DNA from: Gemmatimonadaceae bacterium
GTDB taxonomy: Bacteria > Gemmatimonadota > Gemmatimonadetes > Gemmatimonadales > Gemmatimonadaceae
Reading direction: 5' to 3'
DNA length: 64,000 bases
Assembly: GCA_016742275.1 (NCBI GenBank)
Contig: JACVCD010000006.1
Coordinates: 62,001 to 126,000 of the forward strand
The translations under genes were made by a program, and so were the position numbers. How positions within the stretch are numbered: position 1 is the first letter of the stretch; every line of letters starts with the position of its first letter. Of the stretch, positions 1 through 8,712 are shown in pieces. The notes under the pieces were generated by a model. That model worked only from the letters and a program-made list of their open reading frames with translations, was not told the DNA's origin and did no database searches.

Positions 1-261
1 TTGGACCAGGCGGACGCGGCTCCCGCTGCTCCATCGCCTGACCCATTGCTTGGGGACCACCTGCGACAGGCAATCGCCACACTGTCAAGCAAACTGCAGA
101 TCGTGCTGGTGATGTACGAGATCGAAGGACACAGCCACGCGGAGATCGCGTCGGTGCTTGGAATTCCGGAAGCCACGTCAAAAACACGACTTTCCCAGGC
201 ACGTGCCCAGCTTCGACAGCTCTTGGCGCCATATGCCAAGACGGAGAACAGCAATGGATAA
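1..261 (+). CDS. ECF-type RNA polymerase sigma factor, C-terminal part (5' end outside window)
   Basis: The reading frame is open through base 1, so this is the tail of a longer gene; the TTG at base 1 need not be the true start. The visible 86 residues are a sigma-70 region 4 helix-turn-helix that would contact the -35 element: LSSKLQIVLVMYEIEGHSHAEI followed by the recognition helix with IPEATSKTRLSQARAQLR. The pattern is that of extracytoplasmic-function sigma factors. Region 2 is not in the window. The stop codon overlaps the start of the next gene by 8 bp, so the two are translationally coupled. This is the usual arrangement of an ECF sigma factor with its regulator. Confidence 0.85.
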   Translation: MDQADAAPAAPSPDPLLGDHLRQAIATLSSKLQIVLVMYEIEGHSHAEIASVLGIPEATSKTRLSQARAQLRQLLAPYAKTENSNG

Positions 262-871
262 CGATCAGGACCGCAGCGACTTCTCCGCGCCACCAGACGC
301 GACCCTCGATGCCGCGCTCGCGCAATTGCGTGGCATGCGTCCCGATTCCCCCATGCGAAAGGATGAGGTCTGGCGCGCCATCCAAGCGAGTCAGCGCGCG
401 ACGTCCGAAACGTCCAGCACGCGTCGATGGATGGCCGCGGCGGCCATGGTCGTTATGGCGGGTGGCGCCGGTCTCGCGGTGGAGTGGACACGGCGCGTTG
501 AAGGCAGTGGTGGACAAGGCAGCGCTGTTGTCGATCCTGTATTGGTGAGCGCTGGTCCGATTCTGCGTGCACTGACTACGCCGCAGGTACCGACGCCTCC
601 TGTTGCCGAAGCTGCCGCGTCGCCTTCTGTAGCACTGGTGAAGGAAGACACGCTGCGTCGCCAGAGTGCGCTGCTGCTGGTGGCCACTCGCGTTGCCATG
701 GACGACACGTCTCTGACGTCACAGCAGGAGCGCCTTCTGCTTGACGTGGAGTATGTGCTGGCACAAGTGGTGGAAGCCGGATCGCATGATCAGGCGGAAG
801 GTGCGCTCATTCGCAACACGATCAACAGTCGGAACCTCCTGCGTCGCGTAGAACGCGGAGGTCTGCAATGA
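254..871 (+). CDS. Single-pass membrane protein, possible anti-sigma factor
   Basis: 205 residues. The ATG at 254 lies inside the end of the sigma-factor gene (8 bp overlap), which favours it over the longer in-frame start at 158. The N-terminal ~55 residues are polar and cytosolic. They are followed by a single hydrophobic segment (WMAAAAMVVMAGGAGLAV, about residues 58-75) and a proline- and alanine-rich outer part with a helical C-terminal third. This topology and coupling to an ECF sigma gene fit an anti-sigma factor, but I see no recognisable zinc-binding HxxxCxxC motif. The role is therefore inferred from position. The end overlaps the next gene by 4 bp (ATGA). Confidence 0.6.
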   Translation: MDNDQDRSDFSAPPDATLDAALAQLRGMRPDSPMRKDEVWRAIQASQRATSETSSTRRWMAAAAMVVMAGGAGLAVEWTRRVEGSGGQGSAVVDPVLVSAGPILRALTTPQVPTPPVAEAAASPSVALVKEDTLRRQSALLLVATRVAMDDTSLTSQQERLLLDVEYVLAQVVEAGSHDQAEGALIRNTINSRNLLRRVERGGLQ

Positions 872-1818
872 CATCCTCTTGGTGCTGCCACAGGCGGATA
901 GGTGCTGTGGGGGTCGCGGCATTCTTCGCCTTCGTGTTGATCTCTTGCCAGGATCATCCTGTTGCCGATTCGGCGCGGCGGGAAGCAGGCAGCGCAGTGA
1001 TGGCGAGTGACGTCACGCCAGGTGCAACTGACTCGGCGTCGCAGCTCTACTTGAACGCTCGGGTCGCGCTCGAACAAGACGATACCACGAGTGCGCTGCA
1101 ACAGCTCGATCGCGTTATTGTTGGCTGGTCACAGTCCAACCGCGGCGTGCAGGCCATGTACTGGAAGGCCTTTATCCTGTATCGACGTGGCGCGGCGAGT
1201 GACCTGAAAACGGCCTCGCGTCTTCTGGAGCTTGCCACTCAACTCGCACCGACAACGTTCGCGATCGGCGACGCCTCGACGTTGCTCTTGCGCATCAGGG
1301 TGCGCCTCGCGAATGCGGGGGATTCTGACGCCATTCGGGAGCTGGGATTCCCCGATCACGAGTCATGGACCGCGTGCCGTCTCGCGAACGACGCGAATCA
1401 ACTGGCGCGTGTGGTTTCGGCTGGCGATTCGCCGGAGCGACAGATGGTCTTGTTGCGTGACATCATGGACGACCCTTCGGTGTGTGCTGCTCCCACGCGA
1501 GAGCAGGCCCTGCTGATCTTGGCGCGCATTCCGAACGGCCTTGGCGTTTCTTCTCTGGTTAAGGCCATCGAGGAAGACGGTTCGCTTGCTGTGCGCCGAA
1601 CGGCGTTGCGTGTCCTGCCGCGGCCAGCACCCGACACAGCTCGCAACGTGTTGCGGCAGGTGCTGGTCAGCGCAACGGACGTGACATCACTCGAGGCGGC
1701 GGCGTCCGCATGGGCATCCCGGCTGGACTGGGGCATTGAGCCGCTCCACGCATACCTCAGACGCTCCGATCGCAATGCGACTGTGGTGGACTACGTCACC
1801 AGGCTGCTGACACGTTGA
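868..1818 (+). CDS. TPR/HEAT-like lipoprotein of unknown function
   Basis: 316 residues starting at an ATGA overlap with the upstream gene. The N-terminus has a short charged region, a hydrophobic stretch and a lipobox (FVLISC, Cys 27), so it is probably a lipoprotein. Residues about 55-160 read as paired helices of tetratricopeptide type (YLNARVALEQDDTTSALQQLDRVI). The C-terminal half has HEAT-like helices (REQALLILARIPNGLGVSSLVKAIEE). It is the third gene of the sigma-factor operon, so it may be an envelope sensor or assembly factor for that regulon; no specific activity can be read from the sequence. Confidence 0.6.
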   Translation: MTSSWCCHRRIGAVGVAAFFAFVLISCQDHPVADSARREAGSAVMASDVTPGATDSASQLYLNARVALEQDDTTSALQQLDRVIVGWSQSNRGVQAMYWKAFILYRRGAASDLKTASRLLELATQLAPTTFAIGDASTLLLRIRVRLANAGDSDAIRELGFPDHESWTACRLANDANQLARVVSAGDSPERQMVLLRDIMDDPSVCAAPTREQALLILARIPNGLGVSSLVKAIEEDGSLAVRRTALRVLPRPAPDTARNVLRQVLVSATDVTSLEAAASAWASRLDWGIEPLHAYLRRSDRNATVVDYVTRLLTR

Positions 1819-2705: not shown

Positions 2706-2914
2706 CGGAGTGGGGCAAAGATGGAGTGCTGGGCATCAAGTAGTGCAGGATGTTCCAAAGAACTTCCATCGAAGTGCTGCTGCGCACGACATTCTGCTGT
2801 GGAGCATACTGCGACGGTCGGCCTATACTGGCGGCACTGAACGAGTGCTCGTTCGGCGCGGCAGTATCTGCAATTCGGCAGGACGTCGCGTAGTCCACGT
2901 TCTTGGAGAGACGT
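2706..2914 (+). promoter_or_regulatory. Intergenic region upstream of the peptide genes with a palindrome
   Basis: This stretch holds no convincing gene. A TATACT hexamer at 2824-2829 resembles a -10 element, although no good -35 partner lies 16-18 bp upstream. Just downstream is a 16-bp palindrome, GAACGAGTGCTCGTTC, at 2839-2854, which could be an operator. A purine-rich ribosome site (GGAGAG, 2905-2910) sits directly before the ATG of the first peptide gene. The promoter reading is tentative. Confidence 0.3.
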
Positions 2915-3124
2915 ATGATTCGACGTCGAATTCTCGTTGCGCCGATTTTCCTTTCCGCATTCGCGCTGTTCGCTGCGCCTGCAGTGCCAGATGCGCTCGG
3001 TGGGCCGCGCCTCCATGCCATGGCAGAGGACTGCTGGTTCAAGTGGCTCGCTGATGCTCAGGGCACGATCTACTGCAAGGAAGACGGCCGAAACTGCCAC
3101 GCAGCGTGCCCTGGCGTCGAATAG
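2915..3124 (+). CDS. Small exported cysteine-rich peptide, copy 1
   Basis: 69 residues. The ATG at 2915 is preceded by GGAGAG at 2905-2910, which selects it over the upstream TTG at 2903. The N-terminus MIRRRILVAPIFLSAFALFA is a clear signal or leader segment. A short linker (GGPRLHAM) follows, then a mature part with cysteines at 40, 54, 61 and 65 and the ending NCHAACPG. The neighbour at 3174 has the same length and the same pattern. The layout (leader, short conserved linker, four-Cys tail) recalls the small NVEALA-type exported peptides of Bacteroidetes, which also sit near beta-propeller proteins. That is an analogy only, because the NVEALA motif itself is absent. Function unknown. Confidence 0.65.
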   Translation: MIRRRILVAPIFLSAFALFAAPAVPDALGGPRLHAMAEDCWFKWLADAQGTIYCKEDGRNCHAACPGVE

Positions 3125-3173
3125 TCGTCCTCAAATTTCCAAGTTCTCCAACTCCTTTCCGAGAGTCCAAGAA

Positions 3174-3383
3174 ATGAAACGAGCATTGATCGGCATGCTG
3201 AATCTTTCGACGGTTGCGCTCCCGTTGGCATTCGCCTTTATGACCGTGGATCCGGTAGCGGGTCCTGGTTTGCGTGCGATGACGGACGGAGACTGCAAGC
3301 GGAAGGCAGTATTCGAAAACGGGACGATGCACTGTCACGAAGAAGGAACCAACTGCGTCATCACCTGCCCCGGTGGTACTTGA
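3174..3383 (+). CDS. Small exported cysteine-rich peptide, copy 2
   Basis: 69 residues from the ATG at 3174; the longer upstream frame (to 2937) overlaps copy 1 and is not credible. It is a paralogue of the previous gene: signal-like MKRALIGMLNLSTVALPLAF, then GPGLRAM matching GPRLHAM in copy 1. Cysteines fall at 41, 54, 61 and 65. Positions G50, T51, C54, E56, G58, N60, C61, C65, P66 and G67 are identical in both peptides, although most other residues differ. This is a gene duplication with strong constraint on the cysteine framework. A strong terminator follows directly, so the two peptide genes probably form one transcript separate from the propeller gene downstream, or read through into it partially. 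Confidence 0.65.
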   Translation: MKRALIGMLNLSTVALPLAFAFMTVDPVAGPGLRAMTDGDCKRKAVFENGTMHCHEEGTNCVITCPGGT

Positions 3384-3390
3384 GCTTCGT

Positions 3391-3434
3391 GGGGAGCTTC
3401 GTCACTGACGGAGCTCCCCATTTCTCTCCTTTAT
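3391..3434 (+). terminator. Rho-independent terminator after the peptide genes
   Basis: Inverted repeat GGGGAGCTTCG (from 3391) with CGGAGCTCCCC (to 3419), including one G-U pair and a short loop near 3402-3408, followed by the T-rich run ATTTCTCTCCTTTATT. Placement 8 bp after the stop of the second peptide fits termination or attenuation between the abundant peptide transcript and the propeller and thioredoxin genes. Confidence 0.7.
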
Positions 3435-3470
3435 TGACGAAGTTTCATTCTAGAGAGGACGATGACATCG

Positions 3471-4574
3471 ATGCGTGGTCTCCAGTGTGTTCGATCGATC
3501 GCCAATAGTATTGCGCTTTTCAGTCTAACAATTTCTCTGTGCGCCTGCGGTACGGTCCTCGCTGACGATAGCGCGAAGCCATTCCCTGTCGCTGTTACGG
3601 TCCCGGATTCCGCGGTCCGGGAGATGTTTCTCGAAGCGATAGACTCCGTAAGCCTTAGTGGTAGCGAGTCAGGTCAGGTTGGACGAATCACGCATTTTCT
3701 CCCAACATCCGAAGGCTACTTCGTGATCGACGGAAGCAATAAGGTCGTGCTTGCATTTGATGCGACTGGAGCGCTGACTGCACAAGTCGGACGCAACGGA
3801 ATGGAAATGGACCAATATGAAGATCCATACCGCGTTGCTGTTCGAGGTGATTCAATATTCGTTCTCGATCTTGCGCGTTTCAGTCACGTGCTTGTCTTTG
3901 ATCGAGGCGGCGCCTATGTCGGGGGAGTGAACTGGAAGAATGAGCGAATGCCAACGGATATGCAGCTGACGAATACCGGAATGGCTATTTCGACAACGGT
4001 TAAGCCTGAAAGAGGCAAGCCTTCTGATGTAATGCACATTGTCACTGAGGCCAAAAGCTTTACCGGGTGCCAGATTGATCCTCGTATCATTGAGAGCGAT
4101 AGGAAAGGTGGAATGCTGGGATCAATGGTTTTTGCTACCATAAGTAAGAATGCTGATCGCATCTTCTGTGCTTTGCCGACGACTCCAGTCGTACAAGTAG
4201 TCGATACGTCCGGCCGCCTCCTGCCGCCCGTGACTAGCGCTCCGCCATTCTATGTCGCGCCGCTCGATAAACCGCTGACGATGAACACGAAGCAGATGAT
4301 GGCGTTCAATGCGTCCTTTACCACTCATGTGGCTTTCACGCCGACGCCATCTGGCTTTGTTTCAACCTATAGTCAGTATGACACGGTGGGGCAGCGCACC
4401 AAGTACATGCTTTTTGCCTGCGACAGTGCGAATGCAATCCGGACGTGCGGCACATCGCAGGTGGACCGCCGCGTGCTTCATGTCGCATCACCGGACACCG
4501 TCTTTCTCGAAGAGCCAAGGGTTGATGGTCGTCTTGTCGTTGGCCGCTATCGTATCAAGGGGTTGGGACGATGA
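3471..4574 (+). CDS. Six-bladed beta-propeller lipoprotein
   Basis: 367 residues. Two ATGs compete (3462 and 3471); GAGAGGA at 3453-3459 is 2 bp from the first and 11 bp from the second, so 3471 is preferred. The signal segment ends in a lipobox (ISLCAC). The body is a chain of short beta motifs typical of the 6-bladed propeller proteins common in Bacteroidetes and Gemmatimonadota: HFLPTSEGYFVIDGSNKVVL, GRNGMEMDQYEDPYRVAV, DSIFVLDLARFSHVLVFD. It has five or more cysteines in the mature part. The stop overlaps the start of the CxxC lipoprotein (ATGA), so the two are co-translated. Likely acts at the outer membrane or periplasm as a binding or sensing partner; the ligand is unknown. Confidence 0.7.
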   Translation: MRGLQCVRSIANSIALFSLTISLCACGTVLADDSAKPFPVAVTVPDSAVREMFLEAIDSVSLSGSESGQVGRITHFLPTSEGYFVIDGSNKVVLAFDATGALTAQVGRNGMEMDQYEDPYRVAVRGDSIFVLDLARFSHVLVFDRGGAYVGGVNWKNERMPTDMQLTNTGMAISTTVKPERGKPSDVMHIVTEAKSFTGCQIDPRIIESDRKGGMLGSMVFATISKNADRIFCALPTTPVVQVVDTSGRLLPPVTSAPPFYVAPLDKPLTMNTKQMMAFNASFTTHVAFTPTPSGFVSTYSQYDTVGQRTKYMLFACDSANAIRTCGTSQVDRRVLHVASPDTVFLEEPRVDGRLVVGRYRIKGLGR

Positions 4575-5149
4575 TGTCTGTTCCGAAGGTCTACGCCAGA
4601 TTGATCGTCTTGGCGGCCGTGTGGAGCGTGGGGTGCACTTCATCAGAGGAAAGAGGCACGCGACCGCCCAATTGGCGCCCCGTGACCATGGCGCATGGGA
4701 TTGCGATTGACGCTCAGATTGAGGAGACGTCGTTGGACTGCGGCGATGAAGGGACTCGCCAGCTTGCACCGCGATCGGGAGTTCAGCTGATTACGTTTTC
4801 AACACCCTACGACTGTTCTGCTTGTACGCCGCATTTGGCCGCATTGGATTCGCTGAAAAAGCAGGGCATGCTTCCTGAAGGTGATGCCATGGTGCTTTGG
4901 GCTCCTGGAGAGAATCTTGATCATGAAGTCGGTATGGTGCGGGGGAAAACGCATCGAACAGTCTGCGTCGATCAAAAGGGCATGATGTGGGACAGACATG
5001 ATTTGCAGCATACTCCTGTAACTGTTCTCTTGGTCGATGGTCGCGTCGTTTACATGAACGACCGACTGCTCGATAGCGAGTCACAACGAGCGGCATTCTT
5101 GCAGGATCTGATGCAGTATTCGGGCACGGGACCACATCGATCAGACTAA
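4571..5149 (+). CDS. Thioredoxin-fold lipoprotein with CxxC motif
   Basis: 192 residues, start codon overlapping the previous stop. The leader ends in a lipobox (VWSVGC, Cys 22). The core has the thioredoxin-like order: a strand (VQLITFSTPYD), a CSAC active-site-type motif, a following helix (TPHLAALDSLKKQG), and later HTPVTVLLVDGRVVY, where the cis-Pro strand is expected. Such proteins exchange disulfides or act as TlpA-like reductants in the periplasm. Being coupled to a propeller protein and downstream of two four-Cys peptides suggests a role in forming or reducing the peptides' disulfides; this is inference. It is shorter than, and distinct from, DsbA. Confidence 0.6.
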   Translation: MMSVPKVYARLIVLAAVWSVGCTSSEERGTRPPNWRPVTMAHGIAIDAQIEETSLDCGDEGTRQLAPRSGVQLITFSTPYDCSACTPHLAALDSLKKQGMLPEGDAMVLWAPGENLDHEVGMVRGKTHRTVCVDQKGMMWDRHDLQHTPVTVLLVDGRVVYMNDRLLDSESQRAAFLQDLMQYSGTGPHRSD

Positions 5150-5737: not shown

Positions 5738-5794
5738 TGCCACGCTGATGCCGCGTTGGTAAACGCAGGATTCACATTGGAGATGATCTTGAAG

Positions 5795-6922
5795 ATGGTC
5801 GTGTGGCGTGTGGTCCGGCGGTTGATGCCCGCTATTGGATTCCTTGCCTGTGGTCCCGCAGAAGAGGACGCCGGTGCGGCGGATGCCTCGGCACTGGAAG
5901 CCATTTCCGTATTTGTGCCCGAGGACAGCGTCTCGCTGACGCATGGTGGAGACGACCTGCTACGCGTCGTGGCATTGGCTGCGGACTCGTTCGCCGTTGC
6001 TGGCTACCCGGATGACCCGCTCTGCTTTGTTGCCCTGCGAACGCACGAATCGAAGTGTGTGCCTGTCAAAGGCGGAGGGCCGGCGGAAGTGTTGGGTATT
6101 GAGGAGTTCTCCGTCTGGCCGCCCGCATCCGTCGCAATATGGGACGGACAAACCGGAAAGCTTGGTGTGTGGAGTCGCTCAGGTCGACCGGATACCACCA
6201 TTCAGGTAATGCGTCCCTCGCTCAAACGGCAAATTCTGATCGGCGTTCTTCCTGATTCGACAGTCATTGTCGGCGAGTCTGCGGCATTCGATGACATGCC
6301 CATCGGTGTGCATCCGATTGTGCACAAGCTGTTTGCTGTTCGTGGTGGCACAACCCAGCCCGTCGCACTGTCCGATGGACGTGAGAGTTGGACCAGTGTA
6401 GTCGAAGGCAAAGGCTACCGATCTGGCCGCAACGTGCCGTCATTCGACGAGTCATTTGATGTGGTGACGCGCGGTGGCGTGCTGCGTGTCGATGCTCGGC
6501 GTTGTGTGCTCGAAGCTCCGCAGAGCGAAGCGCGTCCCATTCCCGCTGATGTGTGTGGGACAGGTGCGAATGGTTTTCGTGAGGCTGTCTTACGGAGTCT
6601 CGACTCCGCAGATGGGCCTGATGCGGACACTCATCGCGCAAAGGCTCGCGCTTCGGACATACCCGAGTCGTATCCGAGTATCGCAGCGGTGTTGGCCAGC
6701 TATCACACGGACGAAGTCGCGCTTCGGCGGGGCCGTACATCGAAGGACGTCGCGCCATTTTGGGCGGTGTTGCGCCGCGATGGTTCCGTGGTCGAGAGAC
6801 TCACTGTTCCCGGTGGTATCCGGCTTCTTGGGTTCAGTCGCACGCACTTTGTTGGTGCGCGCGCGCCCGTCGATTCAGAGGAGTCTGTGCAACTGCTCTT
6901 CATGCCACGCGCGTCGCGCTAG
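5795..6922 (+). CDS. Beta-propeller-like lipoprotein of unknown function
   Basis: 375 residues if the ATG at 5795 is used; it is placed about 11 bp after a GGAG-like sequence at 5779-5782. Alternative starts are the ATG at 5783 and the TTG at 5756. The leader ends with a lipobox (IGFLACG). The remainder is made of repeated beta hairpins with inserted aspartates (DSFAVAGYPDD, SVAIWDGQTGKLGVW, DSTVIVGESAAFD), as in 6-bladed propeller lipoproteins, though more divergent than the one at 3471. It stands alone, convergent with the hipBA operon. No ligand or enzymatic residues recognised. Confidence 0.5.
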   Translation: MVVWRVVRRLMPAIGFLACGPAEEDAGAADASALEAISVFVPEDSVSLTHGGDDLLRVVALAADSFAVAGYPDDPLCFVALRTHESKCVPVKGGGPAEVLGIEEFSVWPPASVAIWDGQTGKLGVWSRSGRPDTTIQVMRPSLKRQILIGVLPDSTVIVGESAAFDDMPIGVHPIVHKLFAVRGGTTQPVALSDGRESWTSVVEGKGYRSGRNVPSFDESFDVVTRGGVLRVDARRCVLEAPQSEARPIPADVCGTGANGFREAVLRSLDSADGPDADTHRAKARASDIPESYPSIAAVLASYHTDEVALRRGRTSKDVAPFWAVLRRDGSVVERLTVPGGIRLLGFSRTHFVGARAPVDSEESVQLLFMPRASR

Positions 6923-6938: not shown

Positions 6939-8282
6939 CTACTCAATACCAAGATGAAAGCGCTCGGCCTGATCTCGCATTCCATGGGTGATGCTCTCCC
7001 ATATGTGCGGAGGAAATGTTGCAGGGAGTAAGGGCTCGACCTGCGCAATGGCGCCAGGAACCCTGTCGACCAGATCGCGCATCTCCGTGAATGAGACGCC
7101 GCTCTGGTCTGCAAGACACTTCCAGTGTCGGGTGGCAATCTTCCGGAGCTTGTATCGCTTGATCTTGCAGCGGACGGACATGGCCAGCCTGGCCTCCTGA
7201 ATGGCGAGCTTGCTGGGGCCTACGCCGATGATGGGCCATGCCGAGAGTACATCGTACAGTGGCGTCAGCGTGTGGCCATCGCGCCGCAGAAACAGGGAGA
7301 AGTTCTTGGCGTGTCCGTCGATGGCGGCAAGCACCCAGAACGCAAGCTGGGCCAGCACAAACGTGCGTACATCGTTGTCCGGATCGACACTGGCGCGCAG
7401 TATCTGCATGATGCTGTCCATGCCCGGTCCACCCTTATCTTCGTACTTGTCATCGACGGAGACGCCCAGGGCCTGGCACATGTCTTCCTGGGGCAGTCTG
7501 ATGATGTGTGCGGAAGCATGCCATTGACGGTCAAACCGCTCGACCACCAATGCGTGCTCCGTGCTGACATCATCGCTGAATGTCGCCATCTCTGTCGTTG
7601 CGACGGGGAAGCCCATGGCGTCCAGCAACTGCAAGCACAGCCATTCATTGGCAATGGAGTGCTCGAGGTCGTATCGCATGTTGCCGACGAGGCCAAGCGG
7701 CAACTTGAGGATATGGGTTGATGGTGTGACACCCTTTGGCAGGAACCATCTACCGTCTTTTCGCAGCAGTGCCGTTTTTTCCTGTGCGCCAGCGACAGAG
7801 ATGCGAAAGGGCTCGTCAGCGGTGTCGCGCGCTCCCATGGAATCCGTACTCGTGACGCCGCGCAGAATCCGAGCGACCTCCGATGAGGTCAGTGGCTCAC
7901 CGTCCAGTGCAGTGCGGCTATCCGGGATCTCTCCTTCCGGAAGAATCTGAATTGCGCCCACGCAATCTCGTCCGATTCCAGCAAGCAGATCCCGCGTGGT
8001 GTTGGTGATTCTGAATCGACGGGCGACTCGCCGACGAATTACCGAACTATCGGGAAGCAGGTTGTCGAACCATGTCGTGACATGCTGACCACGATGGGCC
8101 ACGTTGCCTGGAAGAAATGGCAACGACATGGAGACTGGTCGTCCATGTATGGACTCAAGCCACGACGGAGCGTACTCCAACGTATCCGTCCCGGTACTGG
8201 TCTGTCCCCACGTGCCGACACGCTCATCGTTCATCCAAAGCCCGAGCGGACTGCGGCTCTTCGGGCTTCTGCGGATCACCAT
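6939..8282 (-). CDS. hipA: HipA-family serine/threonine kinase toxin
   Basis: 447 residues, close to E. coli HipA (440). Visible HipA features are the N-terminal HipA_N region (LGLWMNDERVGTWGQ, LSLPF-like MSLPFLPGN) and the substrate/ATP region FRISVAGAQEKTALLRKDGRW (SGAQ-like). The catalytic loop is IDGHAKNFSLFL, with Asp as base and Asn as metal ligand, followed by LTPLYDVLSAWP in place of the DFG-type motif. HipA kinases phosphorylate aminoacyl-tRNA synthetases such as GltX and halt growth unless bound by HipB. The start codon overlaps the end of hipB by 7 bp. All key catalytic motifs are present, so the toxin looks intact. Confidence 0.88.
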   Translation of the reverse strand: MVIRRSPKSRSPLGLWMNDERVGTWGQTSTGTDTLEYAPSWLESIHGRPVSMSLPFLPGNVAHRGQHVTTWFDNLLPDSSVIRRRVARRFRITNTTRDLLAGIGRDCVGAIQILPEGEIPDSRTALDGEPLTSSEVARILRGVTSTDSMGARDTADEPFRISVAGAQEKTALLRKDGRWFLPKGVTPSTHILKLPLGLVGNMRYDLEHSIANEWLCLQLLDAMGFPVATTEMATFSDDVSTEHALVVERFDRQWHASAHIIRLPQEDMCQALGVSVDDKYEDKGGPGMDSIMQILRASVDPDNDVRTFVLAQLAFWVLAAIDGHAKNFSLFLRRDGHTLTPLYDVLSAWPIIGVGPSKLAIQEARLAMSVRCKIKRYKLRKIATRHWKCLADQSGVSFTEMRDLVDRVPGAIAQVEPLLPATFPPHIWESITHGMRDQAERFHLGIE

Positions 8283-8593
8283 TCGCCGCCCAGTTCGCGT
8301 CTGGGCGTACGGTGGCGTGTCGCGACCGACGAAGACTGTGGACGCTGGGGGAGCGTCTGAGCTCCCACATCACTGTCGATGTTGATCTCCAGTTGTGCTC
8401 CAAGCAGTTGAAGCAGCTTCAACAGATTGTGCGTGCTGAGGCGCCCCACATCCTTTTCGATGGTTGCGACGCGCGCTGTTGAAACGCCCAGCATTCTGGC
8501 CACATCGGTCTGAGTCTTGCCCTGAGCTTTGCGCAGGGCGCGCACTTGCTCGGTAAGCTGCTGTGTCGTGGTAGCCGAGAATCTGTTTCTCAT
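8276..8593 (-). CDS. hipB: HipB-family antitoxin, XRE-type DNA-binding protein
   Basis: 105 residues from the ATG at 8593; a longer frame to 8632 would begin inside the operator palindromes and is unlikely. The N-terminal ~70 residues form a Cro/C1-type helix-turn-helix: LTEQVRALRKAQGKTQTDVARMLGVSTARVATIEKD. The tail is longer than in E. coli HipB and rich in Gln, Pro and Arg; it may block the kinase. It binds HipA and represses its own promoter. First gene of the hipBA operon. Confidence 0.85.
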   Translation of the reverse strand: MRNRFSATTTQQLTEQVRALRKAQGKTQTDVARMLGVSTARVATIEKDVGRLSTHNLLKLLQLLGAQLEINIDSDVGAQTLPQRPQSSSVATRHRTPRRELGGEW

Positions 8594-8712
8594 GCGATTC
8601 AACTTAAAGGTTGAATTGAATTTTGTAAACATATTTGTTTATTCAACCTATTAATTAATACGAACAATATCAATATATAAGTTGAATATCACTCTGTTAA
8701 CATATATGTTGA
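8594..8712 (-). promoter_or_regulatory. hipBA promoter/operator region with repeated TTCAAC/GTTGAA half-sites
   Basis: A strikingly AT-rich block within a GC-rich genome. It contains a perfect inverted repeat TTCAAC-TTAAAG-GTTGAA at 8598-8615, a second spaced pair TTCAAC (8642-8647) and GTTGAA (8681-8686), and the palindrome AACATATATGTT (8699-8710). HipB-type antitoxins bind palindromic operators in exactly this position, so these are probable autoregulatory sites covering the promoter. Which pairs are real dimer sites cannot be decided from sequence. Confidence 0.6.

What the first reader, a model, noticed from the sequence alone, without database searches (positions are those of the whole stretch)
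2706..5149. Twin four-cysteine exported peptides beside a propeller and a CxxC lipoprotein
Two tandem 69-residue proteins share an identical cysteine and glycine framework (positions 50, 51, 54, 56, 58, 60, 61, 65-67) but differ elsewhere, as expected of exported peptides under structural constraint. They precede a strong terminator, a six-bladed propeller lipoprotein and a thioredoxin-fold lipoprotein that is translationally coupled to it. A stand-alone AraC-like regulator lies upstream. The set suggests a secreted peptide system (signal, toxin or surface peptide) with dedicated disulfide chemistry and a surface receptor. The resemblance to Bacteroidetes NVEALA peptides is by layout only.
Basis: partly seen in the sequence, partly recalled or inferred. 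Interest (0 to 1): 0.78.

Follow-up and report, generated by a model that had tools for sequence, protein, structure and literature searches.

The report
Exported cysteine-peptide, propeller, thioredoxin gene set
A soil-type bacterium carries two small exported peptides with a shared four-cysteine pattern next to genes for a propeller-shaped surface protein and a membrane-anchored thiol-redox protein; the same three-gene set recurs in distant relatives, so it looks like a real, undescribed peptide system whose role is still unknown.

Summary
Two tandem, homologous 69-residue exported peptides (41% identical, one cysteine/glycine framework) lie before a strong hairpin, a six-bladed-propeller lipoprotein and an overlapping TlpA-like thioredoxin lipoprotein. 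Direct peptide searches of related genomes found nothing, but the thioredoxin gene as anchor found five more genomes, four in the same family and one in another. All five have propeller plus thioredoxin, and each has one or two exported Cys peptides beside them; one copy is broken by a stop codon. Propellers of the same subfamily without the thioredoxin have no such peptide (0 of 6 independent loci). A sixth genome pairs the same peptide core with a DsbA-type protein instead. Thus the peptide travels with a thiol oxidoreductase. The distant relative keeps only the middle cysteine pair, which suggests nested C1-C4 and C2-C3 disulfides; a low-confidence model gives a beta-hairpin. Most likely: Sec-exported, disulfide-bonded mini-peptides folded or reset by the lipoprotein thioredoxin and bound by the propeller. 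A toxin or signal role is plausible, not shown. The upstream regulator is not conserved. No Pfam, NCBIfam, PADLOC or NVEALA match.

The parts
2915..3124 (+). exported Cys peptide 1 (69 aa; Cys 40, 54, 61, 65)
   Evidence: homologous to peptide 2
3174..3383 (+). exported Cys peptide 2 (69 aa; Cys 41, 54, 61, 65); mature part modelled as a beta-hairpin with an NG turn
   Evidence: model mean pLDDT 69
3389..3421 (+). 15-bp hairpin, terminator-like or mRNA-stabilising, between peptides and propeller
   Evidence: -27.9 kcal/mol, z -5.8; strong hairpins after the peptide gene also in G132, G012 and G296. Not listed by the simple terminator scan
3462..4574 (+). six-bladed beta-propeller (DUF5128-like) lipoprotein with four conserved Cys (203, 236, 320, 329)
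   Evidence: PF17170 E 2.9e-6; G296 orthologue 4.2e-11; alignments
4571..5149 (+). TlpA-like thioredoxin lipoprotein, motif DCSACxxH, cis-Pro-like TP, two further conserved Cys (57, 132; Cys 57 shifts in two relatives)
   Evidence: family alignments; PDB thioredoxin matches; Redoxin PF08534 4.4e-6 for G296 orthologue; profile matches a classical TlpA-type protein in G382, 1.6e-8

Best explanation
A compact envelope peptide system. Shown: small peptides with a fixed cysteine core sit in a conserved neighbourhood with a propeller lipoprotein and a thioredoxin-fold lipoprotein. Inferred: the precursors are exported by Sec and cut by a signal peptidase (sites such as A-QP-C are clear in relatives, less so here), giving about 30-residue peptides. 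They fold as a beta-hairpin with a conserved Gly turn and two nested disulfides (C1-C4, C2-C3). The membrane-anchored TlpA-like protein makes, isomerises or reduces these disulfides. The propeller lipoprotein binds the peptide at the cell surface or in the periplasm. The hairpin after the peptide genes lets peptide mRNA exceed the downstream genes. The peptide most likely acts on or between cells (competition or signalling); that last step is the least supported.
For: Triad of peptide, propeller and TRX in the window and five further genomes. Peptide and TRX co-occur: 6 of 6 loci with TRX (one peptide copy broken), 0 of 6 independent loci with the same propeller subfamily but no TRX (Fisher 0.001, not corrected for kinship). 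In G178/G179 the propeller pair of G182 is kept while peptide and TRX are both missing. In G162 a peptide with the same core (hhalign E 1.2e-4) is followed at once by a DsbA-type Thioredoxin_4 protein (3.3e-16), with a propeller-like gene divergent. Framework conserved while the rest diverges (21-43% identity). G296 peptides keep only C2 and C3. Beta-hairpin model. ATGA overlap of propeller and TRX in the window, G132 and G012. Strong hairpin after the peptide in four genomes.
Against: No direct evidence of secretion, disulfides, binding or activity. Few genomes (six, plus one variant) and short peptides, so homology rests partly on position. Signal-peptide calls are by eye and by a crude rule; peptides 1 and 2 lack a clean cleavage site. 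TRX model is poor (pLDDT 38). G100 lacks the N-terminal half of the propeller and G132 has a stop at the C2 codon, so the set is dispensable there. No hairpin in G182 or G100. No dedicated exporter or peptidase is conserved.
Confidence: 0.5

Rival explanations
1. The peptides are periplasmic metal-, heme- or electron-carrier mini-proteins. The TlpA-like protein keeps their cysteines reduced for loading, as TlpA/Sco-type proteins do for copper centres, and the propeller is a scaffold.
For: TlpA-like fold of the partner; CxxC near the C terminus in G100, G182, G012 and G132; the propeller also has four conserved Cys.
Against: Spacing of the last two Cys is x3 in the window and x2 elsewhere, and G296 peptides have two Cys only; no conserved His/Met ligand set; no metal-system genes seen in the neighbourhood; the DsbA-type partner in G162 is typically oxidising (general knowledge).
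Confidence: 0.15
2. The peptides are specifically an antimicrobial or pheromone pair and the propeller is the immunity protein or receptor.
For: Fast divergence with fixed framework, tandem copies in the window and G296, patchy spread, mobile-element genes beside the G100 and G182 loci, MacB-type permease directly after TRX in G100 and G132, decayed copies.
Against: No match to bacteriocin or toxin models; propellers of this family are abundant without peptides; MacB-type permeases are common in this phylum (general knowledge).
Confidence: 0.25
3. The neighbourhood is incidental: a TRX-propeller operon for general envelope redox repair, with unrelated small ORFs beside it.
For: Peptide sequences are short and poorly conserved; direct searches failed.
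Against: Pattern hits are almost absent elsewhere (0.067 per 10 kb in shuffles) but present in every TRX locus with an intact peptide gene; same core next to a different oxidoreductase in G162.
Confidence: 0.1

Closest known systems
Glycocins such as sublancin and glycocin F (Gram-positive)
   Same: small exported Cys peptide, two nested disulfides, dedicated thioredoxin-like oxidoreductases in the cluster (BdbAB, GccCD; PMC12457901)
   Different: no glycosyltransferase and no protease-transporter here; Sec-type leader; propeller lipoprotein instead
Etrx1/Etrx2, StoA, ResA, TlpA thioredoxin-fold lipoproteins
   Same: membrane-anchored thioredoxin fold, CxxC and cis-Pro (PDB 2yp6, 3ewl, 4hqz, 3erw; PMC3914529)
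   Different: invariant DCxxCxxH with His where ResA/StoA have Glu, extra conserved Cys, always beside the peptide and propeller
Bacteroidota NVEALA peptides beside six-bladed propellers (layout from my own knowledge)
   Same: exported small Cys peptide before a DUF5128-type propeller
   Different: no NVEALA match; thioredoxin partner is a regular part here
DUF5128/PF17170 six-bladed beta-propellers
   Same: fold of the middle gene
   Different: distinct Cys-rich subfamily tied to peptide and TRX

Membership tests
NVEALA (PF14055) | match to the Pfam model | tested here: not met
   no hit for six peptides at E up to 5
NVEALA (PF14055) | NVEALA sequence motif | tested here: not met
   absent from all peptide sequences; window has LHAMAED / LRAMTDG at that place
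Glycocin-type RiPP | glycosyltransferase and peptidase-transporter in the cluster | tested here: not met
   not among the neighbouring genes read
Glycocin-type RiPP | two nested disulfides | not testable with these tools
   inferred only from joint absence of C1 and C4 in G296
Thioredoxin-fold (TlpA/redoxin) lipoproteins | profile match to the superfamily | tested here: met
   Redoxin 4.4e-6 over cut-off for G296; PDB 2yp6 6.6e-5
Thioredoxin-fold (TlpA/redoxin) lipoproteins | CxxC, cis-Pro and lipobox | tested here: met
   invariant C82, C85, T148, P149 and C22
DUF5128 propeller (PF17170) | score over the curated cut-off | tested here: met
   27.2 bits against 22.9
Selenoprotein (G132 peptide only) | tRNA-Sec in the genome | tested here: not met
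   best hit is tRNA-Ser by ARAGORN; no stable hairpin after the TGA

The most novel reading that the evidence does not exclude
A previously undescribed class of Gram-negative peptide system in which a Sec-exported, nested-disulfide beta-hairpin peptide is matured by its own lipoprotein thioredoxin (or, by replacement, a DsbA) and recognised by a propeller lipoprotein receptor, for competition or signalling in Gemmatimonadota.
Probability: 0.3. Interest if true: 0.75.

Novelty: new variant of a known kind. Interest (0 to 1): 0.55.

Why it matters
Secreted disulfide peptides with their own oxidoreductase are mostly described from Gram-positive bacteria, and little is known of peptides made by Gemmatimonadota. 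A conserved peptide with a propeller partner would give a tractable test of whether six-bladed propeller lipoproteins are peptide receptors, and explain why small Cys peptides keep turning up beside them.

Tried and rejected
Direct searches with the peptides in 61 and 179 relatives gave chance hits only. A six-frame look at the best ones showed random ORFs. Selenocysteine in the G132 peptide (TGA at the C2 codon) was tested and dropped. Pizza6 matches of the TRX profile are repeat artefacts. Other propellers of the own genome lack such a peptide. The one genome-contig scan found only two loci already known here. The G382 TRX match is an ordinary TlpA-type protein without the triad. A TRX gene tree was unresolved, so transfer could not be proved. 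The TRX-like reading of a protein in a second own-genome locus was not supported. For one alignment I wrote Cys at the broken G132 codon; it was redone with X, although the Pfam and NCBIfam scans used the first version. Literature: NVEALA gave no paper; no paper on this set was found.

Full report
What is there. The window lies in a Gemmatimonadota-like genome (G000:C15:62001-126000; relatives found in named records are Gemmatimonadaceae MAGs). Two ORFs of 69 codons (2915-3124, 3174-3383) encode paralogous peptides with a basic start and a hydrophobic stretch, then a short Cys-rich tail. Codon differences fall mainly on third positions. A 15-bp hairpin follows. Then come a DUF5128-type propeller with a lipobox (3462-4574) and, overlapping by ATGA, a lipoprotein with DCSACxxH and a TP motif (4571-5149).

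Search by neighbourhood. Peptide searches gave only noise. The last gene as query found G132, G100, G012 and G182 among 179 family members, and a profile found G296 in another family. Reading these loci showed a propeller next to TRX in all, and exported Cys peptides: one before the propeller in G100, G012 and G182; one in G132 that is broken by TGA at the codon of the second Cys; two in tandem after TRX in G296. G100 has only the second half of the propeller. The pair is therefore a lineage feature and the triad the conserved unit.

Controls. A fixed pattern (signal-like start, C-x(3-6)-[G/S]-x(1-2)-C near the end) found all intact peptides and one unrelated ORF in 208 kb of fetched loci, against 0.067 per 10 kb in shuffles; the pattern was written after seeing the peptides, so recovery is partly by design, but absence elsewhere is informative. 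The closest propellers without TRX (G436, G451, G178, G317, G179, G300 with near-identical G383) have no such peptide. G178/G179 share the G182 pair of propellers (36-40% identity) but lack both peptide and TRX. A degenerate relic there cannot be excluded.

A second kind of partner. G162 has an exported 77-aa peptide with the core GTAVCNPGGGSCF, the next gene being a Thioredoxin_4/DsbA-type protein and a propeller-like gene on the other strand. The core match is short, so this is suggestive.

The oxidoreductase. The family is thioredoxin-fold: Redoxin over cut-off for the G296 member, PDB thioredoxin lipoproteins and a classical TlpA-type protein. D81, C82, C85, H88, C132, D134, T148 and P149 are invariant. 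His sits three residues after the second Cys, where ResA/StoA have a Glu that tunes the site (PMC3914529). The structure model is too weak to use.

The peptide. Common features: a first Cys, a hairpin turn (NG, QG, GG, GN), C2, Gly, C3, C4. The model of mature peptide 2 is a beta-hairpin with the turn at NG, pLDDT about 80 in the middle and 69 overall, from three sequences. G296 peptides lack C1 and C4 together, the basis for the nested pairing proposed; this is an inference from one genome.

Expression. Hairpins right after the peptide genes: window z -6, G132 z -2.6, G012 z -2.8, G296 z -6.3; none in G182 and G100. In G296 it ends the operon, so it may be a plain terminator.

Mechanism and limits. 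See the best explanation. Export, disulfides, enzyme-substrate relation and receptor role are all inferred. Searches scored only the best few candidates per genome in the widest scans, so more loci may exist. The AraC-like gene and the sigma-factor/anti-sigma genes upstream of the window set are not seen in the other loci.

Noticed in passing
L163 5914-8150 (G162): Exported Cys peptide with the same core, DsbA-type gene directly after it, propeller-like gene divergent.
   Followed up: partly
L164 4732-6856 (G000:C32): Second own-genome locus: exported 126-aa Cys-rich protein, exported 192-aa protein of unclear fold, DUF5128-like propeller.
   Followed up: partly
L073, minus strand, peptide before the propeller (G132): Peptide gene with an in-frame TGA exactly at the second conserved Cys codon; genome lacks tRNA-Sec, so a broken gene or an assembly error.
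   Followed up: yes
L074 129-6181 and 8042-10456 (G100): TniB/TniQ transposition genes and an Xre-like antitoxin gene upstream of the peptide; MacB-type permease overlapping the TRX stop.
   Followed up: partly
window 6939-8632, minus strand: Looks like a HipA-like kinase with a HipB-like HTH gene (toxin-antitoxin type); judged from sequence only.
   Followed up: no
window 5792-6922: A further exported lipoprotein without a Pfam match; no profile similarity to the propeller.
   Followed up: partly
window 1-1818: ECF-type sigma factor end (PF08281), a membrane anti-sigma-like protein and a HEAT/TPR-like lipoprotein upstream of the set.
   Followed up: no
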